64,000 nt of DNA from Paludibacteraceae bacterium (GTDB lineage: Bacteria; Bacteroidota; Bacteroidia; Bacteroidales; Paludibacteraceae). Below the pieces are notes generated by a model. It was given only the letters and a program-made list of their open reading frames with translations, searched no databases and was not told where the DNA came from. The stretch lies in the NCBI GenBank assembly GCA_905234685.1, contig CAJOIR010000002.1, positions 105,993 to 169,992 of the forward strand. Reading direction: 5' to 3'. The translations under genes were made by a program, and so were the position numbers. Of the stretch, positions 20,635 through 34,060 are shown in pieces. Each line of letters begins with the position of its first letter. The stretch's first letter is position 1.

Positions 20635-20952
20635 ATGGAAAAGATATACTACAAGATAAGTGAAGTAAGCGAGATGCTCTCAGTACCTGCATCCACTCTG
20701 CGGTTCTGGGAGAAGACAATACCTCAACTTCAGCCTTACAAACACAAAGGCAAGACACGACGCTTTTATACTCCTGAAGACATCGAACTGATAAAAAGAA
20801 TTCAGTTCCTCAGAGAGGAGCAGCAACTGCCTATTGACAGAGTGATAGCCACGCTGAAAAGCGAGTCCTCGTCATTGGGTACACGCATGGAGGCAGTAAA
20901 GACATTGGAACAACTGAAAGCAGAACTTACAGAAATACGCAATAAAATATGA
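20635..20952 (+). CDS. MerR-family transcriptional regulator
   Basis: The 105-residue protein is a MerR-type DNA-binding domain with a short coiled-coil extension. The winged helix occupies residues 5-75 (YYKISEVSEMLSVPASTLRFWE, broken by the usual YTPEDIELI wing region). The C-terminal 30 residues are helical and charged. There is no sensor domain and there are no paired cysteines for metal binding. It overlaps the start of the YfhO gene by 4 bases (ATGA), so the two are translationally coupled. Its target is unknown. Confidence 0.85.
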   Translation: MEKIYYKISEVSEMLSVPASTLRFWEKTIPQLQPYKHKGKTRRFYTPEDIELIKRIQFLREEQQLPIDRVIATLKSESSSLGTRMEAVKTLEQLKAELTEIRNKI

Positions 20953-23360
20953 AAACATTCAATTGGAAAGGACTTGTGCCCTACATTGTGGCAATAATTG
21001 CTTTCATAGCAATTGCTCTGGTATACTGCTCACCTATACTCTCAGGCAAAGTGATGCGCGCCGGTGACGTGAACAACTGGAAGGGGGCCGCTCAAGAGGC
21101 AAGAGAATACAAGGCACAGACAGGTGAAACCACATGGTGGACCAACTCCATGTTCGGCGGCATGCCCACATACCAGATAACAGGCGCCACACCCTCAGGT
21201 GCATTCAGAAAGCACCTTGAGAACATCATACACTTCGGCTTTGACAATGCCATAGGCTTCATCATTGCCTATCTGTGCGGTTTCTTCCTTATGCTGCTTT
21301 GTTTCGGAGTGAGTCCGTGGATAGCATTGGCAGGTGCAATAGCAATGGCTTTCTCATCATATTTCCTGATTATCATTCCCGCAGGACACCTCACCAAGGC
21401 ATCGGCAATAGGCTGTCTGGCTCCGGTAATAGGAGGTTTCTATGCTGTGTTCAGAAAAAGATACTGGTTGGGAGCGCCACTCCTTGCCATCTACAGCATC
21501 ATCGGAATAACACTGCACCCACAGATGTCGTACTATGTAGGACTGCTGTTGGGAGTAATGTTTATAGCAGAATTGTACATTCACATCAGGGAGCGCAGAT
21601 ACAAGGACCTCGCCATAGGCGTAGGAGTGCTGGCTTTGGTTGTAGTTGTGGTAGGTCTCACGAAGCTAAGCTGGTCGGATATGAACACCTCATATTTGAA
21701 AGAGACAATGCGCGGAGGTCATTCTGAATTGACACAGGCAAAAGATGCTGATGCCGAGCTGAAGAAAGGCCTTGACATAGACTATGCCACTGCATGGAGT
21801 TACGACATTGACGAGACTCTCACTCTGCTTGTGCCAAACGTGAAAGGCGGAGCTTCAGGTTATGCTCTTGACGAGAAGAGTGAGACATGCCGCACGCTCA
21901 TGCAAAACGGCTACCCTAAACGGCAGGCTGCACAGGTATGTCAGCAACTGCCTATGTATTGGGGTACACAACCATTCACTTCAGGACCTGTATATGTAGG
22001 CGCAATCATCTGTTTCCTGTTCATACTCGGTCTGATACTCGTGAAAGGTCCTTACAAGTGGGCATTGCTTGTAGCAACACTGTTCTCTATAACACTTGCA
22101 TGGGGCAAAAACTTCATGCCGCTAACGGAGCTATTTTTCAACTGGTTCCCTATGTACAACAAGTTCCGTGCAGTAAGCTCCATTCTTATAGTGGCAGAGA
22201 TTACCATGCCTCTTCTTGGCATCATGGCACTGCAGAAGGTTGTGGAACTGCGCAAGAATGCTGATGATAACAGACGACTCTTTGTTGCTTTGTATGTAAG
22301 TGCAGGCATCACTGCAGGCATCTGTCTGCTGCTTGCTCTGTTCGGCAGTATGATGTGGGATTTCCGCGGACACAGCGACCCACAGTGGCTGCAAGACGCC
22401 TTGGTAGCAGACCGCATACACATGCTCAAGGTTGATGCGTGGAGAAGTTTCGCCTTCATAGCCGCCGCCGCAGTTATTCTTGTAATCTTTATGAAGAAAA
22501 AGTTGAAAGACATCTGGCTTTATGTATTTTTCGCTATCATGTTTGCAGCAGACATGGTGCCCGTAAACAGACGCTACTTCGGCAGCAGGGACTTTGTCTC
22601 CGCAAAAGAGGACAACAACTGGTTTGCCATGCAGCAATGGGAAAAAGACATATTACAGGACAAGAGTCTTGACTACCGTGTACTCAACGTGGCTGCCAAC
22701 ACATTCAATGATGCCCGCACCAGTTACCGCTTGAAATCCATCGGAGGTTATCATGCTGCAAAACTGCGCCGTTATCAAGACCTGATAGATGCACACATCA
22801 GCAAGAACAACATGGCTGTGGTGAATATGCTCAACACCAAGTACTTCGTCACGCAGAACGGAGTGATACGTAACCCGAATGCCATGGGCAATGCATGGTT
22901 TGTGGACAGAGTGCAGTTTGTAGAGACAGCCGATGACGAAAGTCAGGCACTGTGGAACACCGACCTGAAGCATGATGCTGTGGCAGACAAACAGTTTGCG
23001 GACGTGCTGATTGAGAGTTCGGAAGGTGAAGGTCAGATACAACTAATTAACTATGCTCCCAACCGGCTTGAATACAAAGCACTGACATCAGTTGACAAGG
23101 TAGCCGTTTTCTCGGAGATATATTACCCGCATGACTGGCACTTGTATATTGACGGCAATAAGACTGAAATAGGAAGAGTGAACTATGTCCTGCGTGCCGC
23201 GACAATACCTGCAGGCCAACACAATATCGTTATGGAGTTTGTGCCTGCCGCACTGAAGACCGACAAGTGGTGTCTGGCAATTCTGATTATGGCACTTATG
23301 TTGAGCCTGACAAGTTTGTCCTACCCGCTATGGCGAACAAAACTAAGATCAAAGGCGTAA
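20949..23360 (+). CDS. YfhO-family polytopic membrane protein
   Basis: The 803-residue protein has about a dozen hydrophobic segments between residues 10 and 540 and ends with one more (LAILIMALMLSLTSL). A soluble C-terminal domain lies in between (about 560-770). The motif DVNNWKGAAQEAREY and the long periplasmic loops with SMFGGMPTYQ are typical of the YfhO family. YfhO of Bacillus is a GT-C-like enzyme or partner that glycosylates lipoteichoic acid; a related use of lipid-linked sugars here is only an inference. The gene converges on the glycosyltransferase operon, with 87 bases between stops. Confidence 0.85.
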   Translation: MKTFNWKGLVPYIVAIIAFIAIALVYCSPILSGKVMRAGDVNNWKGAAQEAREYKAQTGETTWWTNSMFGGMPTYQITGATPSGAFRKHLENIIHFGFDNAIGFIIAYLCGFFLMLLCFGVSPWIALAGAIAMAFSSYFLIIIPAGHLTKASAIGCLAPVIGGFYAVFRKRYWLGAPLLAIYSIIGITLHPQMSYYVGLLLGVMFIAELYIHIRERRYKDLAIGVGVLALVVVVVGLTKLSWSDMNTSYLKETMRGGHSELTQAKDADAELKKGLDIDYATAWSYDIDETLTLLVPNVKGGASGYALDEKSETCRTLMQNGYPKRQAAQVCQQLPMYWGTQPFTSGPVYVGAIICFLFILGLILVKGPYKWALLVATLFSITLAWGKNFMPLTELFFNWFPMYNKFRAVSSILIVAEITMPLLGIMALQKVVELRKNADDNRRLFVALYVSAGITAGICLLLALFGSMMWDFRGHSDPQWLQDALVADRIHMLKVDAWRSFAFIAAAAVILVIFMKKKLKDIWLYVFFAIMFAADMVPVNRRYFGSRDFVSAKEDNNWFAMQQWEKDILQDKSLDYRVLNVAANTFNDARTSYRLKSIGGYHAAKLRRYQDLIDAHISKNNMAVVNMLNTKYFVTQNGVIRNPNAMGNAWFVDRVQFVETADDESQALWNTDLKHDAVADKQFADVLIESSEGEGQIQLINYAPNRLEYKALTSVDKVAVFSEIYYPHDWHLYIDGNKTEIGRVNYVLRAATIPAGQHNIVMEFVPAALKTDKWCLAILIMALMLSLTSLSYPLWRTKLRSKA

Positions 23361-23447: not shown

Positions 23448-24353
23448 CTACGCCTTTCCAAGTAGTCCCTTTGTTACATTTGCACGGAAAAGAATGAGTT
23501 TCCAGCCTTTCTGCGGTGTGAGGCTGAGGGTGTAGAGGCACATGAGAACAAGAGTGCCCGCCCACTTGACTCCTTCTGAACAAAGACGCTTGAAGTATTT
23601 CCACTTGGATATGGCAAGAGTACGTTTCTGTTCACTCTTGCCTATCTGCAGTGTAAGACGGTCAAAATAGTCCTTCTCAAGTTTCTTCTGTGGTATTATA
23701 TGATGCAACACGGCCTCTGGTAGATAATAGAACTGCATTCCGAGCGTCTGCATCTTGTCGAAGATATCCTTTTCTTCAGCACCCATCAAACTGTCTCCCT
23801 TTCTGCCGAGTTCAGTATTAAAAAGACCCGTTTTCTGAAACACCTCGGCACGATACGCAGCATTGCCTCCACCAGGATACCTGCCGCGAGGATACTGACG
23901 TTCTTTGTCTCCGAAATACATATATCCTGTCAGCAAAGCTTTTGTATATGGAGTCATCCACTCAGGCTCCTTTGTCTCATAAAGGGGGATTATCGGACCT
24001 CCAGCGGCATACTTGTCAGGGTTAAGACTGAAAAAGTCTGCAAAAGTCTGCAGATAGGTATTGTCAACAAGAGCGTCATCGTCAACATAGACCAGTATAT
24101 CGCCTTTCGCCTCTTTTATACCTTTGTTGCGTGCTGCGGAAAGCCCTTGCTCCGACTCTTGCAAATAGCGGAAATTGATGTCTTGATGCCTGTTAGCGAA
24201 CTCCATGCAAACAGTCTTGGTATTGTCGGTGCAGTTGTTGTCAACAAGCAACAACTCATATTCCTGTTTTGCAAGAGTATTCGCGGCTATGCTCTCAAGC
24301 AGGTTGCCTATATACTTCTCGCGGTTGTATGTGCAGATAATGACTGACAGCAT
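23448..24353 (-). CDS. Family 2 glycosyltransferase
   Basis: The 301-residue enzyme is a GT-A fold transferase (GT2). The N-terminus MLSVIICTYNREKYI is the family start, and DDD at 91-93 is the metal-binding DxD region. KGDSLMGAEEKDIF (about 185-198) holds the acceptor-side ED motif. A hydrophobic segment near residue 265 suggests membrane association. It is the last gene of the six-gene minus-strand operon and begins 2 bases after the previous stop. It probably extends the glycan to which the CMP-activated sugar is added; the sugar it transfers cannot be read from the sequence. Confidence 0.85.
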   Translation of the reverse strand: MLSVIICTYNREKYIGNLLESIAANTLAKQEYELLLVDNNCTDNTKTVCMEFANRHQDINFRYLQESEQGLSAARNKGIKEAKGDILVYVDDDALVDNTYLQTFADFFSLNPDKYAAGGPIIPLYETKEPEWMTPYTKALLTGYMYFGDKERQYPRGRYPGGGNAAYRAEVFQKTGLFNTELGRKGDSLMGAEEKDIFDKMQTLGMQFYYLPEAVLHHIIPQKKLEKDYFDRLTLQIGKSEQKRTLAISKWKYFKRLCSEGVKWAGTLVLMCLYTLSLTPQKGWKLILFRANVTKGLLGKA

Positions 24354-24355
24354 GA

Positions 24356-25186
24356 TTATTGTTTCAAATATTCAGTTAATATACTCCTTATCATATTCCC
24401 TTTCCCCTCAGCCTCTTCATGCCAGCATGAGCCGTTAATGGTATGAAGCCATGTCTTGTTATCAAAGTATTCCAACATGTCGGAATGACGTGCTCCACCC
24501 TCTCTGAAAGGCTCCGTCAGCTCATCAGGGAATAAGATATCTTTCTTATTCAATGTGCTATATATCGCCCAATTACCTCCACCTGTGTCAAGATATTGGT
24601 CAAAAGGTTTAACGGGCATGAAATCAACCTTCTTGTCTGCCATGAAGTCATATCGGAAAAACGACATGATGGCTGACATATACCAGCATTCTCCTCTTTC
24701 ACGCAGCGGACCATACACAGGCTGATTCTTCAGTTTGTCAGCTATAGAAACTTCCTTGATTGGAAACAAGTCATGATCTATGAAGCCGAAGATACGTGGT
24801 TTACATTTTTTGATGACATGTTTGTAAACATAGTTCAAACACATTGCATGCGAATAACTACCGCCTACATGATTTAGAAGATTATGCGGTAGTGAGAGAT
24901 AGGATATATTCTCATCACTACAATAAGACTCTATCTGTTTGCGAATGTTTATGTCTGATGAGTTGTCCGCGACCAAATATACAAAATCGTCATTTATATT
25001 CTTTCTCAAAAACACATTCTGATAACGGATGAGTGTCACATTATTGAATGCAACTGTGAAAATCAACGTTTTATCTTTACATTGATTTATGGTAGGAGTA
25101 TTAAGTTCACATACCTCAGGTTTGATTATGGTAAGTCTTTCTAATAATCTCACCCAGAAACGAAATATGCAACGTTTTAATGTCAT
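24356..25186 (-). CDS. GT-A-type glycosyltransferase
   Basis: The 276-residue protein shows a GT-A-like N-terminal half: a beta strand LIFTVAFNNV at 41-50, LVADNSSD at 71-78, and the DxD-type motif D137-H138-D139 in FGFIDHDLFP. I recognise the fold by these landmarks rather than by a close family match. It overlaps the preceding CMP-sugar synthetase gene by 4 bases and is followed 2 bases later by the GT2 gene, so it belongs to the same operon. The donor and acceptor are unknown. Confidence 0.65.
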   Translation of the reverse strand: MTLKRCIFRFWVRLLERLTIIKPEVCELNTPTINQCKDKTLIFTVAFNNVTLIRYQNVFLRKNINDDFVYLVADNSSDINIRKQIESYCSDENISYLSLPHNLLNHVGGSYSHAMCLNYVYKHVIKKCKPRIFGFIDHDLFPIKEVSIADKLKNQPVYGPLRERGECWYMSAIMSFFRYDFMADKKVDFMPVKPFDQYLDTGGGNWAIYSTLNKKDILFPDELTEPFREGGARHSDMLEYFDNKTWLHTINGSCWHEEAEGKGNMIRSILTEYLKQ

Positions 25187-25884
25187 TCAACCGCTTTTGT
25201 TTTGTCAAAATAGTTCTTATATATCATCTCTGCGTAATCGAAATCTTCCGGCCAATCTATATCAATGGATTCAAGTTTGCTTGTCTCATATAGCTGCACA
25301 TGTTCTCCTATTCTGTCATGCCTTTGTCTGTATGTTGCTATGTCAGCGATAAATGCACCGCTGTTAACCTCATACCATATCGGGAGTGTCTGTGTACGTG
25401 GCCACTTTTCAACGGTTCTGTCATAATTCAGAGGGTTCTCATTATTCCACAAGAAAGTTCTCAAAGAATTCACTGACATAAGTGAGTCATACTCTCCGAA
25501 TTTCTCATAGTAGAGATGGATCATTTCTGAATAAGTTCTGGAAGACAGGAACGGCGAGGTGACATGAGTCCATATTATGGTTGCATCATCATTTATTATA
25601 GTTGGAACATAATCTATTAATTCATCGGTCGTCGTTGAAGAAAGGCATAGATGTACCGGACGTGGCAGTAACTTGATTTTCCTGCTATTCATAGAAGCGC
25701 CTATTTCCAACACTGTTTCATCGTCAGACGACAGGAATATCTCGTCAACCTCTGCTGTCTGTATAAGTTGTTGAAGTTTTATATGCAGCAGACCTCCCTT
25801 TATGCCGGCGAACACGCGTGCGTTTTTATTTGGTATTCTCTGACTGCCTTTTCGGCAGGGGAGAAAGACAATGTTCTTTTTCAT
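25183..25884 (-). CDS. CMP-sugar synthetase (acylneuraminate cytidylyltransferase family)
   Basis: The 233-residue protein resembles NeuA/KdsB-type enzymes, which couple CTP to a 3-deoxy-2-keto sugar acid and release pyrophosphate. The nucleotide-binding motif PCRKGSQRIPNKN (residues 9-21) matches the family ARxGSxRxPxKN pattern. SSDDETVLEIG (about 52-62) and the C-terminal metal-site motif SIDIDWPEDFDYAEM are also typical. The substrate may be a sialic, KDN, legionaminic, Kdo-like or unusual acid. It overlaps the aldolase by 4 bases and the next glycosyltransferase by 4 bases. The tight coupling supports one pathway. Confidence 0.85.
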   Translation of the reverse strand: MKKNIVFLPCRKGSQRIPNKNARVFAGIKGGLLHIKLQQLIQTAEVDEIFLSSDDETVLEIGASMNSRKIKLLPRPVHLCLSSTTTDELIDYVPTIINDDATIIWTHVTSPFLSSRTYSEMIHLYYEKFGEYDSLMSVNSLRTFLWNNENPLNYDRTVEKWPRTQTLPIWYEVNSGAFIADIATYRQRHDRIGEHVQLYETSKLESIDIDWPEDFDYAEMIYKNYFDKTKAVE

Positions 25885-27452
25885 TTTGTCAATAAAAAAT
25901 AAACAGACAATTCTTTCAAATTATGATATTTGGTAGGCAATAAGGACAACATCCTAATTTGTGGCGCAAAGAAACTTACAACAGACTGATTCTCCTCCAT
26001 CATATCAAACTTGTCAGATTTAGCATCAGTACCATAACCATCATATCCCGCAAGCAGTATTTCCTCTGCTTTCAGGTACATTGCTATTTTAATTGACACG
26101 TATAGAGGAGAGTCTGCCATATTTTTCTCCATTTCTGTAGAATAATTCAATGGCAAAACATAAACCTGTTTATCCAAATTTAAAGGAATGTAGGTACTCA
26201 TGTTTGGACTCTGCGGTGTTATTACAAATCTGTCACTCTTTCTTACAGAAGATATGTGTTTTTCAAGACGCTTGCCCTCTATACCAACCAGATAAATGTA
26301 TCTGTCAACATCTTCGGGTAATGAATCAAACAGATAAAGGTGCTTACTGGAAGAAAATATCAGATTTACATTTTTTGTCTGTCTTCTTATGAATTCAATA
26401 ATGGCATCTATGTGTGCAATTACAGATTCTCCACCACCGATTAGAATAGTCACTGTCTCACTGTCGGCAGTCTCGCACAATACAGGACAAACAAATTCTG
26501 ACTCGGTTTGTTTTATATGTGCTTGTAGTCTTCTAACTATACTTTCTGCCGAATAACGTTTTTTAGTTATCCACTCCATTATGTCCTTTTGAGGAAGTGA
26601 ATTACAGCCGGAAATCATATATGGCAAATTTGTTCCCCAACCATAATTATGTCTGAGAGTTTCAAAATCCTCCAATGTTTCCATCATGGTATTCAATGAC
26701 AAGGAAGAATCAAATCTCGTACAATAAGTCATCATGAGTTCCATACGTAGATTTCCCGCACCACGCCCCATACCTGAGATAGTAGCATCAACAATATCAA
26801 TACCGGCTTCTATTGCAGCACGCGTATTAGCAAATGCCAACTCCAGATTATTATGTCCATGAAATCCAATTTTACCTTTATAGTGCATACGCAATTTCTT
26901 CACGCAGTCAGCTATCTGCTCAGGATATACACTACCATAAGAGTCTACCATCATGACACAGTCAACATATTTGTCTGCATTTCCTAACAATTCTGCAAAA
27001 CTGGGATTCTCAACCCATGTTGACATATACATAATATTTACAGCCGTCTCTAATCCTTGATTTTTTGCTATTCTGGCTATTGCTATTGCTTTTTCAATAT
27101 CATTGGGTCTGGTGGCAAAGCGAATCATATCAACATATTCCGATATATCTCCTAACAAAACTGACACATTGTCCTGATTAACTTCCTTAAGGTTAACCAT
27201 AACTGCTCTCTTTTTGTCTGGACACAACTGTTGACATTGTTTCAGCACAAAATCTGGCAAATAATCATACTGACCATGATAGGAATCTGTTTCAGCGCTG
27301 CGATAACCCAATTCCACATAATCAATAGGCAATGAGTTTACAGCCTTGAGATACTTCTCCACCAAAGAATATGGAAAATCCCAATTGGTATAGTACCCTC
27401 CGTCCCTGAGGGTGCAATCAAGAATACTGATATTTTTTCCGTTAATTATCAT
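25881..27452 (-). CDS. HMGL-like (DRE-TIM) aldolase fused to a DUF115-like Rossmann domain
   Basis: The 523-residue protein begins with a TIM-barrel aldolase of the HMGL/DmpG superfamily. LDCTLRDGG (residues 11-19) supplies the catalytic Arg-Asp pair, H198 and H200 with N202 in HGHNN match the metal-binding motif, and GMGRGAGN is at 228-235. Family enzymes form or break C-C bonds with pyruvate or acyl-CoA enolates. Residues 334-523 form a second domain starting TILIGGGESVIAHID, a Rossmann-like glycine-rich loop similar to DUF115 proteins. The gene sits 8 bases after the sialyltransferase-like gene and overlaps the CMP-sugar synthetase. My inference is that it makes the 2-keto-3-deoxy sugar acid used by that enzyme. 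No PEP-dependent synthase is seen nearby. Confidence 0.8.
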   Translation of the reverse strand: MIINGKNISILDCTLRDGGYYTNWDFPYSLVEKYLKAVNSLPIDYVELGYRSAETDSYHGQYDYLPDFVLKQCQQLCPDKKRAVMVNLKEVNQDNVSVLLGDISEYVDMIRFATRPNDIEKAIAIARIAKNQGLETAVNIMYMSTWVENPSFAELLGNADKYVDCVMMVDSYGSVYPEQIADCVKKLRMHYKGKIGFHGHNNLELAFANTRAAIEAGIDIVDATISGMGRGAGNLRMELMMTYCTRFDSSLSLNTMMETLEDFETLRHNYGWGTNLPYMISGCNSLPQKDIMEWITKKRYSAESIVRRLQAHIKQTESEFVCPVLCETADSETVTILIGGGESVIAHIDAIIEFIRRQTKNVNLIFSSSKHLYLFDSLPEDVDRYIYLVGIEGKRLEKHISSVRKSDRFVITPQSPNMSTYIPLNLDKQVYVLPLNYSTEMEKNMADSPLYVSIKIAMYLKAEEILLAGYDGYGTDAKSDKFDMMEENQSVVSFFAPQIRMLSLLPTKYHNLKELSVYFLLTK

Positions 27453-27460
27453 ATATGTTA

Positions 27461-28489
27461 TTATAATGATATTTGTTCTGATATGTTTGTCATTATGTCT
27501 GTAGGATGATATGCGGGCGTACCTTTAAGCAATGGCATCATACTATAGCATCTAACACCCTCTTGTGAGACATATAAAGCCACCGAGGAATCGCAGGAAT
27601 AAAAATCAGCCTTGCACCATGCAAGCAAATTTTCCAACACAAGATCCTGTGGCAATTCATGTATATTAGGAAACAACTCTTTCAACAATCTGCAATAATA
27701 CTCCTTATATACTTTGTTGTTTATAGAGTTGAAACGCGGATGAAGTTTGAAAGCAATGAGTTTGTATTGTTTTTCCGCCATGAATTCAGCAAGAGACTTA
27801 AATATTTGAGCCACTCTTTCATTATCAACTCTGCTATTGAAAAGAGGATCAACAGATATGACGGCATCTGGATAAATAGCATATTCCTGGGGTTCAAAAG
27901 GAGAGCCAATCACTTTCAAATATTGCTGGTGCAATGGGAAACATAATTGCGAAGTGGCAATACACCCTTTGAATTTTGGATGACAAGTGGTAATAAAATT
28001 ATTTTTTAGAGTGAATATTCTCGGGTATAATAGCACAAGTAGAAACTTGTATATGACATATCTCCACCCAACAAATGCCTGAGGGTTGCTTCTTTCGTAT
28101 GAAACCAATCCGTCTTCCATGACATAATACCCTGCACATTTGTCATTTGTTACCATCATACTGCATATATCATTATAACATACTGATGTGTACCACATGA
28201 ACATACCCTCTCCTATAAAACCATCTATCAAGGCATCAAATTCGCGCATATTTTTTGCAGTCTTGAATATATTCAATCCTGCAAAAATTCTTCCGTGTTT
28301 AATGTCTGTATTATAAGATGTTGCTAGTCTGTTATGGTATATGTCATTATACTCAGGTGGAATTTCATAGTTTCTCAACAAAAGGAAATAACAATCATCC
28401 GGCTGAATATTGTCAGCAAGAATTATCTTTCGTGCAACATTAAATGTCAAATGGCTTGCTATACCGAAAAGATGTTTCATGTCAGTCAA
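27461..28489 (-). CDS. Sialyltransferase-like (GT52/GT38/polysialyltransferase-type) glycosyltransferase
   Basis: The 342-residue protein has no signal peptide. It shows, in order, E125-D126-G127 (MEDGLVSYER), H250-P251 (FKLHPRF) and S301-S302 (SCDSSVALY). These match the D/E-D/E-G, H-P and S-S/T motifs described for bacterial GT-B sialyltransferases and polysialyltransferases, which use CMP-sugars. A hydrophobic stretch at about 145-157 may anchor it to the membrane. It overlaps the KdsC-like gene by 8 bases and is followed by the aldolase and CMP-sugar synthetase genes. Transfer of a CMP-activated acid is therefore a consistent reading. Overall similarity to known families appears low, so the assignment rests on motifs and neighbours. 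Confidence 0.6.
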   Translation of the reverse strand: MTDMKHLFGIASHLTFNVARKIILADNIQPDDCYFLLLRNYEIPPEYNDIYHNRLATSYNTDIKHGRIFAGLNIFKTAKNMREFDALIDGFIGEGMFMWYTSVCYNDICSMMVTNDKCAGYYVMEDGLVSYERSNPQAFVGWRYVIYKFLLVLLYPRIFTLKNNFITTCHPKFKGCIATSQLCFPLHQQYLKVIGSPFEPQEYAIYPDAVISVDPLFNSRVDNERVAQIFKSLAEFMAEKQYKLIAFKLHPRFNSINNKVYKEYYCRLLKELFPNIHELPQDLVLENLLAWCKADFYSCDSSVALYVSQEGVRCYSMMPLLKGTPAYHPTDIMTNISEQISL

Positions 28490-28976
28490 GTTGTTGCCGA
28501 TAGTGTCTTATCATATCCGTCAGTTCTCTCACTGCGCCATAACCACCGGAATGGTGCATTACACGAATGTGCGGTATGTCAAGAACTTCTTCGCAGGCAT
28601 CATGAGGGCAGGCGGCAAGGCCAACTGCCTGAAGAAGTGCGATATCGTTTACGTCGTCACCGATGAAAGCGACTTCATCCATACTGACACCTGTTTCAGC
28701 ACAAATCTTTCTCACAGCTTCAACTTTGCCATCGAAACGCACTCCCATGCACAGGTAGTCAACACCAAGTTTTTTTGCACGAGCCTCCACTATGCCTGTT
28801 GTTTCAGATGTTATTATGCCCACTTTCACGCCTACCTGCTGCAACAGTTTCATACCCATGCCGTCACGCACATAAAAACGCTTCATGCAGTCGCCGTCAG
28901 AAGTGTAATACATACCGCCGTCAGTCAGTGTGCCGTCAACATCAGTAAAGAAAAGTTTTATCTTGACTTCTTTCAT
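28482..28976 (-). CDS. KdsC-like HAD phosphatase (3-deoxy-2-keto sugar-acid phosphatase type)
   Basis: The 164-residue protein is a cap-less HAD phosphatase of the KdsC/KDN-9-phosphatase class, which acts as a tetramer. Motif I is D12-V-D14-G-T, motif II is T56-S57 (IITSETTG), and motif III/IV is GDDVNDIALL. The C-terminal GGYGAVREL loop, which completes the neighbour's active site, is also present. E58, R66 and K69 align with residues I recall as marking the 9-carbon (KDN-9-phosphate) branch rather than KDO-8-phosphate. It is the first gene of the six-gene operon, with a matching divergent promoter upstream. Confidence 0.85.
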   Translation of the reverse strand: MKEVKIKLFFTDVDGTLTDGGMYYTSDGDCMKRFYVRDGMGMKLLQQVGVKVGIITSETTGIVEARAKKLGVDYLCMGVRFDGKVEAVRKICAETGVSMDEVAFIGDDVNDIALLQAVGLAACPHDACEEVLDIPHIRVMHHSGGYGAVRELTDMIRHYRQQLD

Positions 28977-29000
28977 ATATATCTTTGTCGTTTATGACGG

Positions 29001-29031
29001 CAAAGTTATAGTATTTTTGCGAATACACAAA
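29001..29031 (-). promoter_or_regulatory. Promoter of the CMP-sugar operon
   Basis: On the minus strand TTTG (29028-29031) and TAACTTTG (29001-29008) are 19 bases apart, which suits the Bacteroidetes sigma factor. It is the only promoter-like element seen for the six-gene operon and overlaps the plus-strand promoter. Confidence 0.7.
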
Positions 29032-29047
29032 ATTATTATTATCTTTG
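29016..29047 (+). promoter_or_regulatory. Promoter of the GT4-heptose operon
   Basis: TTTG (29016-29019) is followed after 20 bases by TATCTTTG (29040-29047). The ATG of the first gene is at 29082, leaving a leader of about 28 bases. The -33 element lies between the two elements of the minus-strand promoter, so the two polymerase sites interlock. Confidence 0.75.
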
Positions 29048-29081
29048 CAGGCTGTTAATTGATAACAAATACGGGAAAAAC

Positions 29082-30215
29082 ATGAAAATAGTCATTCTTG
29101 GCACAGCATATCCCTACAGAGGCGGTCTGTCTGCTTTCAATGAACGGTTGGCATCGGAATTTATCAAGGAAGGGCATGATGTGGAGATATTAACCTTCAC
29201 ATTACAGTATCCATCGTTCCTTTTCCCTGGCAAAACCCAGTATTCTGAAGAGCCTGCGCCTTCAAACCTGAAGATAACAAGGGTGATGAACTCTGTCAAC
29301 CCGTTCTCTTGGCTGCATGTGGGACGCATGATACGCCGGATGAATCCCGACTTGCTGGTTATCAAATTCTGGATACCTCTCATGTCTCCCTGTCTGGGCA
29401 CTATAGCCCGTATAGCAAAACGCAACAACAAAACAAAAGTTGTCAGCGTACTCGACAACGTAATTCCTCACGAGAAGAGGCCTTTGGACAAATTGTTAGT
29501 GAGGTATTTTGTAAATAGTATCGACCGCTTCGTAGCAATGTCAGACAGCGTGCTCAGCGACCTACGGTTTTTTGTCAAACACAAATCGGCCGCATTGTGC
29601 CCGCATCCTCTGTATGACAACTTCGGTGCTGCCTTGCCTAAGGCAGAAGCTAGAAAGAAACTGAATATACCTAACAAGCAGACAATGTTGCTTTTCTTCG
29701 GATTTATCAGAGACTATAAAGGTCTCGACCTTTTGATGGAAGCGTATGCCGATAATCGGATTGACAAAAGTAAGGTGAGACTTGTGATTGCAGGCGAGTA
29801 CTACAACAATAAAGACAAATACATTGAACTGGAGACAGCACTTGGTTTGAAAGGGCTCATTGACTGGCGTACAGAGTTCATACCTGACAGCGAAGTAGCA
29901 ATCTATTTTTCTGCAGCCGACCTCATTGTTCAACCATACAAAAGCGCCACACAGAGCGGTGTGACACAGATTGCTTATCACTTTGAGAAGCCGATGCTGG
30001 TAACTAACGTAGGTGGTTTGGCAGAAATAGTACCAAATGGCAAAGTCGGTTATGTGACTGAAGTCGATGCCACAAGCATAGCAGATGCACTGATTGACTT
30101 CTGCAGTAACCCTAACAGCAACCGCTTCAAAGAAGGCATACAGAAAGAAAAGAAAAAATATGCATGGAGCAGAATGACTGCAGCCATCATCGCGCAAGAG
30201 AATACGCAACAATAA
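29082..30215 (+). CDS. Family 4 glycosyltransferase
   Basis: The 377-residue GT-B enzyme has the GT4 layout. The N-terminal half begins MKIVILGTAYPYRGGLSAFN, with the glycine-rich acceptor loop. The C-terminal half carries the donor-binding region VQPYKSATQSGVTQIAYHF and NVGGLAEIV, the family E-x7-E-like segment. It is the first gene of an operon with hddA, gmhA and hddC-gmhB, so it may transfer the heptose that they activate. That link comes from gene order; the donor is not visible in the sequence. Confidence 0.85.
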   Translation: MKIVILGTAYPYRGGLSAFNERLASEFIKEGHDVEILTFTLQYPSFLFPGKTQYSEEPAPSNLKITRVMNSVNPFSWLHVGRMIRRMNPDLLVIKFWIPLMSPCLGTIARIAKRNNKTKVVSVLDNVIPHEKRPLDKLLVRYFVNSIDRFVAMSDSVLSDLRFFVKHKSAALCPHPLYDNFGAALPKAEARKKLNIPNKQTMLLFFGFIRDYKGLDLLMEAYADNRIDKSKVRLVIAGEYYNNKDKYIELETALGLKGLIDWRTEFIPDSEVAIYFSAADLIVQPYKSATQSGVTQIAYHFEKPMLVTNVGGLAEIVPNGKVGYVTEVDATSIADALIDFCSNPNSNRFKEGIQKEKKKYAWSRMTAAIIAQENTQQ

Positions 30216-30235
30216 AGACAAACAACACCAGCAAC

Positions 30236-31264
30236 ATGACTATACGAAGCAAAGCACCACTGAGATTGGGTCTCGCAGGAGGAGGCACCGATGTGTCACC
30301 ATATTCCGATTTGTACGGAGGAGCAATATTGAATGCGACGATATCACTTTATGCCTACACCACAATAGAACCCATCGACAACGGCAAGGTAATATTCTCA
30401 TCGCCTGATGCAGGAAAGGAAGAGATATACGACAGCGCAATGCAACTGCCCACAGACGGATATTTCATTCTCGCCAAAGGAGTTTACAACCGCGTAGTGA
30501 AAGATTTCATACAACAAGGTTTATCTGTCCGCATTACCAGTCACGTAGATTCTCCTGCCGGCAGTGGGCTGGGCACAAGCAGTACACTGACGGTAAGCAT
30601 ACTCGGTGCTTTTGCCGAATTGCTCAAACTGCCGTTGGGAGAGTATGACTTAGCAAGACTCGCATATGAGATAGAGCGCAAAGACCTCGGACTCTCAGGA
30701 GGCAAGCAAGACCAATATGCTGCCACTTTCGGAGGATTCAATTATATGGAGTTTCTGCCTGATGACAAGGTTATAGTCAATCCGCTCCGCATCAGACAAC
30801 GTTTTCAGGACGAACTGGCACATAACCTCCTGCTCTATTATACCGAGACTAGTCACGTCAGCGCACAGATAATAGAAGGACAGATAAGAAATGTTAATGC
30901 CGGCAAACAGAGCTCGATAGAGGCAATGCACTGCCTTAAGGCTCAAGCGGCACAGATGAAGGAAAGTCTGCTGCGTGGTGACATTGACGGCATAGGCAGC
31001 ATTCTTCACTTCGGCTGGGAAGAGAAAAAGAAGATGACTAATGGCATAAGCAACCGACTGCTTGACGACATATACCAGACGGCCATCAACGCAGGCGCTA
31101 CTGGAGGAAAAGTGAGCGGTGCAGGAGGAGGAGGTTTTATGTTCTTCTATTGCCCCGGCACAAGCAGGTATGCCGTAGAGAAGGCTCTCACCGAGCGATT
31201 CTCTGGACAAGTTAAACGTTATGAATTCACTTCTGAAGGTCTAAAGACATGGACAATGCAATAA
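30236..31264 (+). CDS. hddA: D-glycero-D-manno-heptose 7-phosphate kinase (HddA)
   Basis: This 342-residue GHMP-family kinase phosphorylates D-glycero-D-manno-heptose 7-phosphate at C1. It begins MTIRSKAPLRLGLAGGGTDV, the usual HddA start. A longer frame opens at 30164 inside the preceding gene, so I chose 30236, 20 bases after the GT4 stop. The GHMP glycine/serine loop SPAGSGLGTSSTL (about 104-116 from this start) and the C-terminal GAGGGGFMFFY motif are present. It overlaps gmhA by 16 bases and works between GmhA and the GmhB domain of the downstream fusion. Confidence 0.9.
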   Translation: MTIRSKAPLRLGLAGGGTDVSPYSDLYGGAILNATISLYAYTTIEPIDNGKVIFSSPDAGKEEIYDSAMQLPTDGYFILAKGVYNRVVKDFIQQGLSVRITSHVDSPAGSGLGTSSTLTVSILGAFAELLKLPLGEYDLARLAYEIERKDLGLSGGKQDQYAATFGGFNYMEFLPDDKVIVNPLRIRQRFQDELAHNLLLYYTETSHVSAQIIEGQIRNVNAGKQSSIEAMHCLKAQAAQMKESLLRGDIDGIGSILHFGWEEKKKMTNGISNRLLDDIYQTAINAGATGGKVSGAGGGGFMFFYCPGTSRYAVEKALTERFSGQVKRYEFTSEGLKTWTMQ

Positions 31265-31830
31265 CCAAGGCGATAGCTTCGAGTATCGCAGCCAAACAAC
31301 TCATTCTGGACGACAAGTCTTTTCTGCTGCGTATACAAAAAGCAGCTGATATAATTATTGATGCCCTCAAAAGCGGACATCGTGTCTTATGGTGCGGCAA
31401 CGGAGGCAGTGCGGCAGATGCACAGCATCTGGCTGCCGAACTCTCAGGACGTTTCTATTTCGACCGTCCCCCTCTCAACTCAGAGGCGTTACACTGCAAT
31501 ACTTCTTACCTGACTGCTGTAGCAAACGACTATGGCTACGACCTCATATATTCACGTATGATTGACGGAGCTTGCCGACCGGGCGATGTACTGGTTGGTA
31601 TCTCAACTTCAGGCAACTCGAAGAACATACTCTTTGCCTTTGACAAGGCACGCGAATTAGGAGTTACCACTATTGCCTTAACAGGCAGCACAGGAGGCAG
31701 TATGGCACACAAGTCTGATGTGCTGCTCAACGTGCCGAGCAACGACACTCCGCGCATACAGGAATGCCATATCATGATTGGACACATCATCTGCGAACTC
31801 GTGGAAAAGAACCTCTTCCCTAATCACTGA
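31249..31830 (+). CDS. gmhA: Phosphoheptose isomerase GmhA
   Basis: The 193-residue SIS-domain enzyme converts sedoheptulose 7-phosphate to D-glycero-D-manno-heptose 7-phosphate. GNGGSAADAQHLAAELSGRF (about 51-70) holds the phosphate loop and the catalytic Glu. RIQECHIMIGHIICE near the C-terminus provides the catalytic His region. The length is normal. The start ATG lies inside the last codons of hddA, pointing to coupled translation. The next gene begins 10 bases after its stop. Confidence 0.93.
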   Translation: MDNAITKAIASSIAAKQLILDDKSFLLRIQKAADIIIDALKSGHRVLWCGNGGSAADAQHLAAELSGRFYFDRPPLNSEALHCNTSYLTAVANDYGYDLIYSRMIDGACRPGDVLVGISTSGNSKNILFAFDKARELGVTTIALTGSTGGSMAHKSDVLLNVPSNDTPRIQECHIMIGHIICELVEKNLFPNH

Positions 31831-31840
31831 TTCATACCTG

Positions 31841-33073
31841 ATGATACATGAAGCCGTTATACTCGCAGGAGGCTTTGGCACTCGCCTGAGTCATGTCATT
31901 GGTGATATTCCAAAGCCAATGGCACCTGTTGCAGGCAAACCATTTCTCACCTACGTGTTGGATGGCTTGTGCAAGGCAGGCATAACCAAGGTTATACTTG
32001 CCACAGGCTACAAACATGAAATAATAGCACGGTATTTCGGCAGTGAATACAATGGCATGAGTGTTGATTACTCTCAGGAGAAAGAACCGTTGTTTACAGG
32101 AGGAGCAATTGCGCAGGCATCAGCAATGACTGAAGGTAGCGATTTTCTTGTGCTCAACGGCGACACATTGTTCGACATTGACTACAGCGCGTTCTGCCGC
32201 AATCATGAGCGACACAATAATGTTCTAACCATCGCCCTGCGCCAAGTGGAAAACACAGAGAGATACGGAGCGGTTGAAGTAACCGGCAATATCATTTCCA
32301 CATTTCGGGAGAAAGACTCCTCAGCAGGAGCAGGTCTCATAAATGGCGGAATATATGTTGTGAACAAAGAGTGGCTTTCAGGGCAGAATATGCCCCGCAA
32401 GTTCTCTTTTGAGAAAGACTTGTTGCAGGCGAAGGCACACGAGAAATCGTTTAGTGGTGTTGCATGTTCACAATACTTTATTGATATCGGTGTTGCAGAT
32501 GACTATTACCGCGCGCAATATGATTTCAGGCAACGAATCACGCAAGACCGGTATTTGTTTCTCGACAGAGACGGAGTGCTGAACAGACAGATCATAGGCG
32601 ACTATGTACGCAACATATCGCAATGGGAGTGGTTGCCAAATGTCCTAAGCACAATGAAACATCTGTCAGAGAGATATTCAAGAGTATTCATCGTAAGTAA
32701 CCAGCAAGGCATAGGCAAAGGGTTGTTAACTAGCGAAGACTTGGAGAGAATTCACAAGTCAATGCTTTCCGACATAGAGTTGGCAGGAGGCAGAATAGAC
32801 GGAGTTTATGTGTGTCCTGATCTGGCAGACAGTGACTCAGGTATGCGCAAACCCGCCATTGGAATGGCATTAACTGCAAAAAAGGATTTCCCTGAAGTAG
32901 ATTTCACACGCTCTGTCATGGCTGGCGACTCACTGACAGACATGCAGTTTGGATATAACGCCGGCATGCGTTGCGTGTATATAACGAAAGGTCAGGCTAT
33001 ACCACCACAAATACAAGACTATACCGACTTGTGGATAGAAAGTTTAGAATGCCTGCCATCCTTGTGCCTTTAG
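31841..33073 (+). CDS. hddC-gmhB: HddC-GmhB fusion: heptose-1-phosphate guanylyltransferase and heptose-1,7-bisphosphate phosphatase
   Basis: The product (410 residues from the chosen start) joins two steps of GDP-D-glycero-alpha-D-manno-heptose synthesis. Residues 1 to about 225 form a nucleotidyltransferase starting MIHEAVILAGGFGTRLS, with KPMAPVAGKPF and NGDTLFDIDY. About 230-410 form a HAD-IIIA phosphatase with LDRDGVLN, VSNQQGIGKG and GDSLTDMQFG. The GmhB domain lacks the Cys-rich zinc loop usually present in E. coli-type GmhB: only one cysteine (YVCPDLAD) is seen there. A longer frame begins at 31778 inside gmhA, but MIHEAV is the usual start. The 3' end overlaps thiL on the opposite strand by 30 bases. 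Confidence 0.87.
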   Translation: MIHEAVILAGGFGTRLSHVIGDIPKPMAPVAGKPFLTYVLDGLCKAGITKVILATGYKHEIIARYFGSEYNGMSVDYSQEKEPLFTGGAIAQASAMTEGSDFLVLNGDTLFDIDYSAFCRNHERHNNVLTIALRQVENTERYGAVEVTGNIISTFREKDSSAGAGLINGGIYVVNKEWLSGQNMPRKFSFEKDLLQAKAHEKSFSGVACSQYFIDIGVADDYYRAQYDFRQRITQDRYLFLDRDGVLNRQIIGDYVRNISQWEWLPNVLSTMKHLSERYSRVFIVSNQQGIGKGLLTSEDLERIHKSMLSDIELAGGRIDGVYVCPDLADSDSGMRKPAIGMALTAKKDFPEVDFTRSVMAGDSLTDMQFGYNAGMRCVYITKGQAIPPQIQDYTDLWIESLECLPSLCL

Positions 33074-34060
33074 TGCTATTTCTTCTCCGTTTCTGCCAAT
33101 TAGGTTGCAGCCGTATTCTGGTTTCGTGATATGACCTATCATATACACATCCTCCAACGGTATCAGTTTCTCATAGTCTGACAACGAACATGTAAACAAA
33201 AGTTCGTAGTCCTCGCCTCCATTCAAAGCACATGTCACTATGTTCAGATTCATTTCTTCAGCCAGCACAGCAGCCTGATAGTCAATAGGTATCTTGTCTT
33301 CATATATGGCACATCCGCAATTCGACTGAGTACATATATGCAGGAGCTCAGAACTGAGTCCGTCACTTATATCCATCATAGCTGTTGGGTGAATGCCAGT
33401 CTCACGCAGTTTCTTCACTATGTCAAGGCGTGCCTCCGGTTTCAGTTGTCTTTCAAGCAGGTATTCCTTTCCCTCGAAAGCAGGAGTGCCTTCGGGGTTT
33501 GCTTGCATCACTATACGTTCTCTTTCAAGGAGCTGCAACCCGAGGAAAGCGCTACCGAGATTGCCGGTGCAGCAGATAAGGTCGTTCTCCTTAGCGCCAT
33601 TACGATACACTATTTCGTCTTTCTTCGCCTCACCAATGCAGGTGATGCTGATGGTAAGACCTGTCATCGAAGAGCATGTGTCACCACCTACCAAGTCCAC
33701 ACTATAACGCTCGCATGCAAGGCGTATGCCTTTGTATAACTCTTCGATATTCTCCACAGAAAAACGCTTTGATATGCCAAGCGACACCACAATCTGAGTA
33801 GGTGTGGCATTCATGGCACATATATCGGAGAAATTCACTATCGCCGCTTTGTAGCCCAGATGCTTGAGAGGCACATATTCAAGATTGAAATGAATGCCTT
33901 CAAGCAGCAGATCGGTTGTCACCAATGTGCGTTTGTTATGGAAATTCAACACCGCAGCATCATCGCCAACACCTTTCTCTGTAGATTTTTGAGTGTAGTG
34001 CAGTTTGTCAGTCAGGTGCCTAATCAACCCGAACTCTCCTAATTCCTTTATCTCTGCCAT
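33044..34060 (-). CDS. thiL: Thiamine-monophosphate kinase ThiL
   Basis: The 338-residue ATP-dependent kinase makes thiamine diphosphate from thiamine monophosphate. It has the PurM/ThiL fold with GEFGLIRHL, GVGDDAAVL (about 32-40), the metal motif VGGDTCSS (about 123-130), MDISDGLSSEL and GGEDYELLF. Length and landmarks are normal. Other thiamine genes are absent from the window, and no TPP riboswitch is seen in the short leader. It is monocistronic and converges on hddC-gmhB with overlapping ends. Confidence 0.95.
   Translation of the reverse strand: MAEIKELGEFGLIRHLTDKLHYTQKSTEKGVGDDAAVLNFHNKRTLVTTDLLLEGIHFNLEYVPLKHLGYKAAIVNFSDICAMNATPTQIVVSLGISKRFSVENIEELYKGIRLACERYSVDLVGGDTCSSMTGLTISITCIGEAKKDEIVYRNGAKENDLICCTGNLGSAFLGLQLLERERIVMQANPEGTPAFEGKEYLLERQLKPEARLDIVKKLRETGIHPTAMMDISDGLSSELLHICTQSNCGCAIYEDKIPIDYQAAVLAEEMNLNIVTCALNGGEDYELLFTCSLSDYEKLIPLEDVYMIGHITKPEYGCNLIGRNGEEIALKAQGWQAF

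What the first reader, a model, noticed from the sequence alone, without database searches (positions are those of the whole stretch)
23448..28976. Six-gene operon that looks like a CMP-activated sugar-acid pathway using an aldolase instead of a PEP synthase
In transcription order the genes are KdsC-like phosphatase, sialyltransferase-like transferase, HMGL-like aldolase, CMP-sugar synthetase, a GT-A transferase and GT2. Overlaps or gaps between them are 2-8 bases. The chemistry fits: an aldolase makes a 3-deoxy-2-keto acid (possibly as a phosphate), the phosphatase removes phosphate, CMP is added and a GT-B enzyme transfers the product. The usual NeuB/KdsA gene is absent. Known families support each step; the aldolase step and product are inference.
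Basis: partly seen in the sequence, partly recalled or inferred. Interest (0 to 1): 0.85.

Follow-up and report, generated by a model that had tools for sequence, protein, structure and literature searches.

The report
Aldolase-made, CMP-activated sugar acid genes
A small gene set in a gut bacterium's surface-sugar region appears to make an acidic sugar by a route I found no record of, in which a pyruvate-type aldolase stands in for the usual sialic-acid-type synthase; related bacteria and viruses carry the same enzyme pairing.

Summary
The six genes are real, at the stated coordinates and tightly packed. In the 80 best of 203 database loci a CMP-synthetase lies within 3 genes of the aldolase in 79; 78 are within 2 genes on the same strand, 22 expected by chance. 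The partner alternates between KdsB-like and PseF/NeuA-like types, at least 18 changes on the aldolase tree. In 29 of 33 viral loci the aldolase is fused to a KdsB domain. In the 80 loci no KdsA and, in 63, no NeuB was found; the window's genome has no NeuB match. A HAD phosphatase lies nearby in 59 of 80, but in none of the viral loci.

The operon's KdsC is probably the housekeeping Kdo-8-phosphate phosphatase: it is the only match in the genome, and relatives have it without this aldolase. The aldolase's C-terminal third is an MptE-like domain. Substrate and product are inferred. Ten searches of an open-access library found no description.

The parts
28482..28976 (-). KdsC-type HAD phosphatase, 164 aa; probably the genome's housekeeping Kdo-8-phosphate phosphatase, possibly shared with this pathway
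   Evidence: TIGR01670 133.6 bits over cut-off; only match in the genome at E 1e-10, and 55 of 61 genomes searched (window's included) have one; present in stretches without this aldolase
27461..28489 (-). polysialyltransferase-like glycosyltransferase, probable CMP-sugar-acid transferase (342 aa from TTG, 339 from the ATG)
   Evidence: PF07388 30.7 bits over cut-off 23.3; a partial homologue, 45% identical over 214 aa, lies beside a pseudaminic acid pathway in G035/L040
25881..27452 (-). two-domain HMGL/DmpG-type pyruvate-aldolase-like protein, 523 aa; key enzyme of the proposed pathway
   Evidence: PF00682 87 bits; 3DXI putative aldolase 309.9 bits; residues aligned with the DmpG metal and pyruvate site conserved
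25884..26477 (-). C-terminal MptE-like (PF01973/DUF115-type) domain of the aldolase, residues 326-523
   Evidence: AlphaFold2 pLDDT 92.4; Foldseek best hit archaeal HPPK 8sd5, E 3e-4; PF01973 matched at E<=1 by 50 of 79 members, not by the window's own sequence
25183..25884 (-). CMP-sugar-acid synthetase (CTP_transf_3; PseF/NeuA-like), 233 aa
   Evidence: PF02348 54.7 bits; best solved relatives are CMP-Neu5Ac synthetases; the other such protein in the genome is a true KdsB
24356..25186 (-). GT-A-like glycosyltransferase, 276 aa, family uncertain
   Evidence: sub-threshold Glycos_transf_2; homologue found in 5 of 80 loci
23448..24353 (-). GT2 glycosyltransferase, 301 aa; recurring edge gene of the variable glycan slot, not specific to the pathway
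   Evidence: PF00535 109.4 bits; homologues of 66-72% identity in L026, L035, L041, L042 and L044

Best explanation
The operon is a cassette inside a variable surface-glycan locus. The aldolase domain, a metal-dependent pyruvate aldolase of the DmpG/HMGL superfamily, condenses pyruvate with an aldehyde (possibly a sugar-derived aldehyde phosphate) to give a 3-deoxy-2-ulosonic acid. A HAD phosphatase removes the phosphate where there is one: in most bacterial relatives the ~208-aa HAD, here perhaps KdsC or none. The adjacent CMP-synthetase activates the acid, and a polysialyltransferase-like enzyme transfers it from CMP to the glycan. The MptE-like C-terminal domain may handle the nucleotide-activated product or its transfer. 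So an aldolase replaces the PEP-dependent NeuB/KdsA step. Shown by sequence: gene order, families, pairing, fusion, absence of a linked synthase in most loci. Inferred: the reaction, its direction, the aldehyde, the product, and the roles of the phosphatase and the C-terminal domain.
For: (1) Pairing: nearest CMP-synthetase at +1 in 67, +2 in 10, +3 in 1, -1 in 1 and not found in 1 (contig end) of 80 loci; 78 of 80 within 2 genes on the same strand, against 22.2 expected within 2 genes on either strand, at most 39 in 200,000 draws. (2) Fusion: 29 of 33 viral loci encode aldolase + KdsB in one ORF, 14 clusters at 90% identity; 3 more have the two adjacent. In the three scanned the KdsB half passes NF009905 (287, 282, 269 bits; cut-off 255). 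(3) Exchange: 26 KdsB-type and 52 PseF-type partners of 78, at least 18 changes on the aldolase tree. Six of six cassette KdsB-type proteins scanned fall below the KdsB equivalog cut-off TIGR00466 (123-147 bits; cut-off 155.2) while the genome's own KdsB passes (201), as expected if their substrate is not Kdo. (4) No KdsA match in 80 of 80 loci, no NeuB in 63 of 80; no NeuB match in the window's genome nor in 11 of 50 other carriers, among them a complete Pedobacter chromosome (L090). (5) Active site: R16, D17, H198, H200, N234 the same in all rows sampled, residue 171 Ser or Thr; residue 20 is Tyr in every CMP-linked row, Leu in the chorismate-mutase-linked clade, His in the sampled DmpG (roles recalled from DmpG work). 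(6) A phosphatase recurs in bacteria: HAD in 59 of 80, a KdsC-type one in subfamily C. (7) In G035 a partial homologue of the window's polysialyltransferase-like enzyme lies beside a PseB-C-F-G/H-I set.
Against: No enzymology exists; 3DXI is a solved structure for which I found no paper. 35 of the 50 carriers searched have a NeuB above 100 bits somewhere in the genome, and 17 of 80 loci have one in the stretch fetched. In 11 of 80 loci a second pyruvate aldolase of the HpcH/HpaI type is present and could be the condensing enzyme there. The window lacks the ~208-aa HAD, and none of the 33 viral loci shows it, so a phosphorylated intermediate is not general. Two aldolases with Tyr20, on Mesorhizobium and Streptomyces plasmids, have no CMP-synthetase in the stretch fetched. 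DmpG's His is replaced by Tyr, so its mechanism cannot simply be carried over. The window's CMP-synthetase meets no equivalog cut-off (57.6 bits for PseF, cut-off 205.7).
Confidence: 0.66

Rival explanations
1. Chain-modifying or two-aldolase reading: the HMGL-type domain works with the CMP-synthetase but does not make the ulosonic acid backbone from pyruvate. Another enzyme (an HpaI-type aldolase where present, or a NeuB/KdsA product from elsewhere) makes the backbone, and the HMGL-type domain extends, cleaves or epimerises it.
For: HpcH/HpaI-type aldolase at +1 in 10 of 80 loci and further off in 1, between the pair in L181, L182 and L184; NeuB above 100 bits in 35 of 50 carrier genomes.
Against: 69 of 80 loci have no HpaI-type gene within six genes, 63 of 80 have neither NeuB nor KdsA, and the window's genome has no NeuB match. 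The viral fusions tie the aldolase to KdsB, with no HpaI-type or NeuB match in any of the 33 viral loci.
Confidence: 0.14
2. Non-aldol chemistry: the HMGL-type domain is a Claisen-type synthase using an acyl-CoA (like isopropylmalate or citramalate synthase), and CMP is attached to an unusual acid that is not a 3-deoxy-2-ulosonic acid.
For: The HMGL superfamily includes acyl-CoA synthases, which give weaker matches; the DmpG His is replaced by Tyr.
Against: The best family matches are the aldolases (PRK08195, 112.8 bits, against 75.2 for the best acyl-CoA synthase). A third of the partners (26 of 78) are KdsB-type, whose known members act on Kdo-like ulosonic acids (recalled specificity).
Confidence: 0.1
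3. Bystander reading: the operon simply activates and transfers Kdo or another ordinary ulosonic acid made by the housekeeping KdsA-KdsC, and the aldolase is catabolic or unrelated.
For: KdsA present on contig C4; the operon's KdsC is the only match in the genome.
Against: The genome has a separate true KdsB. Pairing in 79 of 80 loci, gene fusion and over-chance adjacency are not expected of a bystander.
Confidence: 0.06
4. KdsC is a true member of this pathway here (compatible with the best explanation, not exclusive of it): the operon's KdsC took over from the lost ~208-aa HAD and dephosphorylates both Kdo-8-phosphate and the new ulosonate phosphate.
For: KdsC is first in the operon and lies directly upstream of the set in L047; KdsC-type phosphatases are part of the subfamily C cassette in 3 of 3 loci, two of them scanned; the ~208-aa HAD was found in none of the five Paludibacteraceae loci L046-L050.
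Against: In nine relatives' stretches (L036-L044) kdsC occurs without this aldolase, in seven of the nine with thiL in the stretch as in the window's slot; in G031 it is three ORFs away from the set. So its position says little.
Confidence: 0.35

Closest known systems
NeuB/PseI/LegI or KdsA pathways to CMP-sialic acid, CMP-Pse, CMP-Leg, CMP-Kdo
   Same: CMP-synthetase of the same superfamily, often a HAD or KdsC-type phosphatase, CMP-dependent-type transferase, location in surface-glycan loci; a Pse set stands beside a homologous transferase in relative G035
   Different: No PEP-dependent synthase in the cassette; an HMGL/DmpG-type aldolase takes its place
DmpG / 4-hydroxy-2-oxovalerate aldolase (TIGR03217)
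   Same: HMGL fold family, aligned metal and pyruvate-site residues
   Different: 94.8 bits against a cut-off of 286; Tyr for His at position 20; no acetaldehyde dehydrogenase among the scanned neighbours; extra MptE-like domain; CMP-synthetase partner
PDB 3DXI, putative aldolase (source organism Bacteroides vulgatus is recalled)
   Same: 309.9 bits over residues 8-312, the DCTLRDGGYYTNWDF signature
   Different: The solved chain is 320 aa and matches only the aldolase domain; no paper found
MptE-like proteins (PF01973: archaeal HPPK; Maf flagellin transferases as recalled)
   Same: Fold of the C-terminal domain; a stand-alone PF01973 protein lies next to the CMP-synthetase in L027
   Different: Fused to an aldolase; sequence similarity weak (best E 7e-6 among 79 members); function untested
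HpcH/HpaI pyruvate aldolases (GarL, YfaU, HpaI)
   Same: Pyruvate aldolases making 2-keto-3-deoxy acids (recalled); a homologue is present in 11 of 80 cassettes
   Different: Unrelated family (PF03328); its known members are catabolic and not part of CMP-sugar routes (recalled)

Membership tests
NeuB/KdsA-dependent CMP-ulosonic acid pathway | PEP-dependent NeuB or KdsA family synthase in the cassette | tested here: not met
   NeuB 0 in the window's genome; KdsA on another contig; in 80 loci NeuB in 17, KdsA in 0
NeuB/KdsA-dependent CMP-ulosonic acid pathway | CMP-synthetase of the CTP_transf_3 superfamily | tested here: met
   54.7 bits, cut-off 22.6
NeuB/KdsA-dependent CMP-ulosonic acid pathway | CMP-synthetase activates a 3-deoxy-2-ulosonic acid | not testable with these tools
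   needs enzymology
DmpG 4-hydroxy-2-oxovalerate aldolase | curated equivalog score (TIGR03217, 286 bits) | tested here: not met
   94.8 bits
DmpG 4-hydroxy-2-oxovalerate aldolase | metal ligands and pyruvate-binding Arg conserved | tested here: met
   R16, D17, H198, H200 in all rows sampled including the Thermus DmpG; roles recalled
DmpG 4-hydroxy-2-oxovalerate aldolase | catalytic His (His21 of DmpG, recalled) | tested here: not met
   Tyr20 in the window and in all CMP-linked rows sampled
DmpG 4-hydroxy-2-oxovalerate aldolase | partner acetaldehyde dehydrogenase next to it | tested here: not met
   none among the ten proteins scanned from 23448 to 33073; present next to dmpG in L168 and L169
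KdsC phosphatase (YrbI family) | TIGR01670 subfamily score | tested here: met
   133.6 against 106.95; equivalogs NF007019 (126.2/208) and NF058599 (157.8/180) not met
PseF pseudaminic acid cytidylyltransferase | TIGR03584 equivalog score | tested here: not met
   57.6 against 205.7; true PseF of L040 scores 290.1
KdsB Kdo cytidylyltransferase | TIGR00466 equivalog score | tested here: not met
   window protein 22.3/155.2; six KdsB-type partners (L060, L126, L133, L136, L150, L183) 123-147, also below, though all six pass the broader NF009905
Polysialyltransferase family PF07388 | gathering score | tested here: met
   30.7 against 23.3
MptE-like PF01973 (C-terminal domain) | gathering score in the window's own sequence | tested here: not met
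   window domain shows no PF01973 hit at E 1; 50 of 79 members match at E<=1
MptE-like PF01973 (C-terminal domain) | fold | tested here: inconclusive
   only Foldseek hit at E<0.001 is the archaeal HPPK 8sd5, TM 0.51

The most novel reading that the evidence does not exclude
A previously undescribed class of CMP-activated sugar acids is made in bacteria of several phyla and in viruses by pyruvate aldolases of the HMGL/DmpG superfamily instead of PEP-dependent synthases. Bacteroidota use an aldolase-MptE-like fusion with an interchangeable CMP-synthetase; many environmental viruses carry the two enzymes as a single bifunctional aldolase-CMP-synthetase, to decorate host or virion surfaces with a sugar acid not yet seen chemically.
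Probability: 0.55. Interest if true: 0.82.

Novelty: new variant of a known kind. Interest (0 to 1): 0.72.

Why it matters
As far as I recall, the described routes to CMP-activated ulosonic acids (sialic acids, Pse, Leg, Kdn, Kdo) use a PEP-dependent synthase of the NeuB/KdsA superfamily, and genome surveys look for the nonulosonic ones through NeuB. A recurrent aldolase route would mean such surveys miss a class of acidic surface sugars in Bacteroidota and in viruses. It also suggests a function for a family with a solved structure for which I found no paper (3DXI), and offers one-step pyruvate chemistry to sugar acids already coupled to CMP activation. The viral bifunctional protein makes it directly testable with one purified polypeptide.

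Tried and rejected
Rejected: that the six genes form one conserved unit (only the pair, plus a HAD in most bacterial relatives, travels). Rejected: that kdsC marks the pathway. Rejected: that the CMP-synthetase might be the genome's only KdsB. Rejected: that every HMGL-type relative has a CMP partner: the clade L030-L034 has a chorismate mutase gene beside it in 5 of 5 and shows no CMP-synthetase within four genes. Led nowhere: a first structure job with 4 sequences gave a poor model. Literature searches gave no description; only listings and abstract starts were seen, except PMC10433991, of which I saw passages. Its reference list names a K3 antigen with a 4-deoxy-2-hexulosonic acid, a structural precedent I could not link to an aldolase. 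A Klebsiella pentulosonic acid precedent is recalled only (one search found nothing). PHROGs gave no match to the two viral fusions scanned. Dropped or limited: 123 of 203 loci were not returned by the tool. NeuB was searched in whole genomes for 50 of the 80 loci. L048 and L049 have the contig lengths of genomes G031 and G039 already in hand; they were left out of the tree but not out of the counts. Gene numbers in those counts come from mechanical longest-ORF calling, which can pick an antisense ORF: it missed the CMP-synthetase of GC-rich L126 (put right), the HAD of L129 (found) and one kdsC of L045 (found).


Full report
OBSERVATION. Pfam and NCBIfam confirm a KdsC-type phosphatase, a polysialyltransferase-family GT, an HMGL-like protein nearest to 4-hydroxy-2-oxovalerate aldolases, a CTP_transf_3 cytidylyltransferase and a GT2; the fifth gene has only a sub-threshold GT2 hit. 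The window's assembly is 92% complete; its nearest named relatives by the aldolase are Paludibacteraceae MAGs from ruminant guts.

LOCUS. Comparison with relatives shows a variable surface-glycan slot between a YfhO-family membrane gene (20949-23360; PF09586 30.2 bits, cut-off 28.5) and thiL (33044-34060; TIGR01379 324.5, cut-off 184). In G034/L044 the same two flanks enclose other glycan genes, with kdsC and the edge GT2 kept. In G031/L026 they enclose the other five window genes at 57-74% identity, with kdsC (53%) three ORFs away. In G035/L040, PseB, PseC, PseF, PseG/H and PseI genes (all over their cut-offs except the PseH part) lie beside a partial homologue, 45% over 214 aa, of the window's polysialyltransferase-like enzyme. 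There a standard CMP-nonulosonate pathway occupies the place that the aldolase set has here.

KDSC. At E 1e-10 the window's genome has one match to this KdsC, the operon's; 55 of the 61 genomes searched, the window's included, have at least one. Of 11 stretches fetched around kdsC in relatives (L035-L045), none holds the window's aldolase type; two (L035, L045) hold distant aldolases and nine none, and in seven of the nine thiL is in the stretch. KdsA and a true KdsB are on other contigs. The simplest reading is that this KdsC serves Kdo synthesis.

THE PAIR. Two peptide patterns from four aldolases found 203 relatives in named genomes; the best 80 came back with up to 10 kb on each side. They are mostly Bacteroidota, with a Desulfocapsa and a Calothrix. 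With profile searches, the nearest CMP-synthetase is the next gene in 67, two genes on in 10, three in 1, one upstream in 1, and not found in L109, whose contig ends just after the aldolase. Given the genes and CMP-synthetases per locus, 22.2 loci would have one within two genes by chance (either strand); 78 do on the same strand. In the 67 directly adjacent pairs a 4-base overlap is the commonest spacing (20 of 67). An even draw of 395 genomes of the phylum gave 9 positive genomes including the window's.

EXCHANGE AND FUSION. The CMP-synthetase is KdsB-type in 26 and PseF/NeuA-like in 52 of 78 aldolases on the tree, and the type changes at least 18 times (quick tree, this label not tested against shuffles). 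The six KdsB-type partners scanned pass the broad NF009905 but not the KdsB equivalog, which the genome's own KdsB passes. A Leisingera plasmid carries aldolase, a gene annotated 3-deoxy-manno-octulosonate cytidylyltransferase, and a HAD hydrolase in a row. In viral contigs 33 loci were confirmed. In 29 the aldolase and a KdsB domain form one ORF of 552-589 aa (one is 476 aa, cut by the contig end), in 14 clusters at 90% identity; three more have separate adjacent genes and one (L162) shows none. In these fusions KdsB stands where the MptE-like domain would be. None of the 33 viral loci has a match to the ~208-aa HAD, the HpaI-type aldolase or NeuB.

OTHER CASSETTE MEMBERS. A ~208-aa HAD_2-type phosphatase lies within six genes in 59 of 80 loci, at +2 in 47. 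An HpcH/HpaI-type aldolase is present in 11, at +1 in 10. Neither was found in the window's operon or in the other Paludibacteraceae loci L046-L050. Two further aldolase subfamilies are also CMP-linked: B (L035, L163/L171, L164/L170) and C (L045, L172, L173). In C the pair is followed by an acetolactate-synthase-like enzyme in two adjacent ORFs and a KdsC-type phosphatase in 3 of 3 loci.

ACTIVE SITE AND C-TERMINAL DOMAIN. Residues R16, D17, H198, H200 and N234, which align with DmpG's metal and pyruvate site (roles recalled), are the same in all rows sampled; residue 171 is Ser or Thr. Position 20 is Tyr in every CMP-linked row, Leu in the clade next to chorismate mutase and in one lone Priestia aldolase, and His in the Thermus DmpG (the Arcobacter DmpG row and two fusion rows, L141 and L145, were dropped because the motif search missed them). 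Tyr20 is also found in two plasmid aldolases without a CMP-synthetase in the stretch fetched (L128, L129). Residues 326-523 fold with pLDDT 92 into a domain whose only solved match at E below 0.001 is an archaeal HPPK, in line with weak PF01973 hits in 50 of 79 members. The same Pfam family includes, as recalled, the Maf transferases that attach nonulosonic acids to flagellin, and a stand-alone PF01973 protein follows the CMP-synthetase in L027. A transferase or nucleotide-handling role is therefore my guess.

NEUB. NeuB gives no match in the window's genome, which is 8% incomplete. Of 50 other carriers searched whole, 39 have a match at E 1e-3 and 37 pass the cut-off; counting only matches above 100 bits, 35 have one and 15 do not, including the complete chromosome of Pedobacter sp. 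PAMC26386. So NeuB often coexists but is not needed. Where NeuB lies in the stretch (17 of 80 loci, 19 genes), all but two of the 19 have another CMP-synthetase in the stretch besides the aldolase's, in most within four genes. No KdsA match is in any of the 80 loci.

JUDGEMENT. That the aldolase and the CMP-synthetase work in one pathway I regard as established as far as sequence can do it (about 0.9, my estimate). That the aldolase makes a 3-deoxy-2-ulosonic acid from pyruvate is the best chemistry consistent with both partners (0.66). Chain length, aldehyde, phosphate and stereochemistry are open. Ten literature searches in an open-access library gave no description; subscription journals are mostly not held.

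Noticed in passing
L131-L138, L140-L143, L145-L161 (viral contigs): Bifunctional aldolase-KdsB fusion proteins (552-589 aa, one cut at 476) in viral contigs; of the three loci read, two have genes that look like glycosyltransferases, an epimerase or a sugar dehydrogenase nearby (read from sequence). No PHROGs match in the two fusions scanned.
   Followed up: partly
L030-L034: A different HMGL-type aldolase clade (DCT[VI]RDGGLMN signature, Leu at position 20) sits directly beside a chorismate mutase gene (PF01817) in five of five Bacteroidales genomes; its reaction is unknown to me.
   Followed up: partly
L045, L172, L173: Cassette of CMP-synthetase, single-domain aldolase, an acetolactate-synthase-like ThDP enzyme in two adjacent ORFs, and a KdsC-type phosphatase, in 3 of 3 loci: possibly a branched or extended sugar acid.
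   Followed up: partly
L053, L061, L063, L074, L085, L100, L110, L122, L123, L124: HpcH/HpaI-type pyruvate aldolase inserted next to the HMGL-type aldolase: two unrelated pyruvate aldolases in one cassette.
   Followed up: partly
window 29082-33073: Divergent gene set resembling GT4, HddA, GmhA and a fused HddC/GmhB (GDP-D-glycero-D-manno-heptose type; below the NCBIfam equivalog cut-offs), also kept in L040, L043 and L045.
   Followed up: no
G516 contig C1, 3156610-3158139 and 3177220-3178764 (L182, L181): Two aldolase cassettes about 20 kb apart in one genome, each with an HpaI-type gene and a PseF-like gene; the tool reports two stops within one of the aldolase matches.
   Followed up: no
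L128, L129: Mesorhizobium and Streptomyces plasmid aldolases with Tyr20 but no CMP-synthetase in the stretch fetched; a HAD hydrolase follows in both.
   Followed up: no
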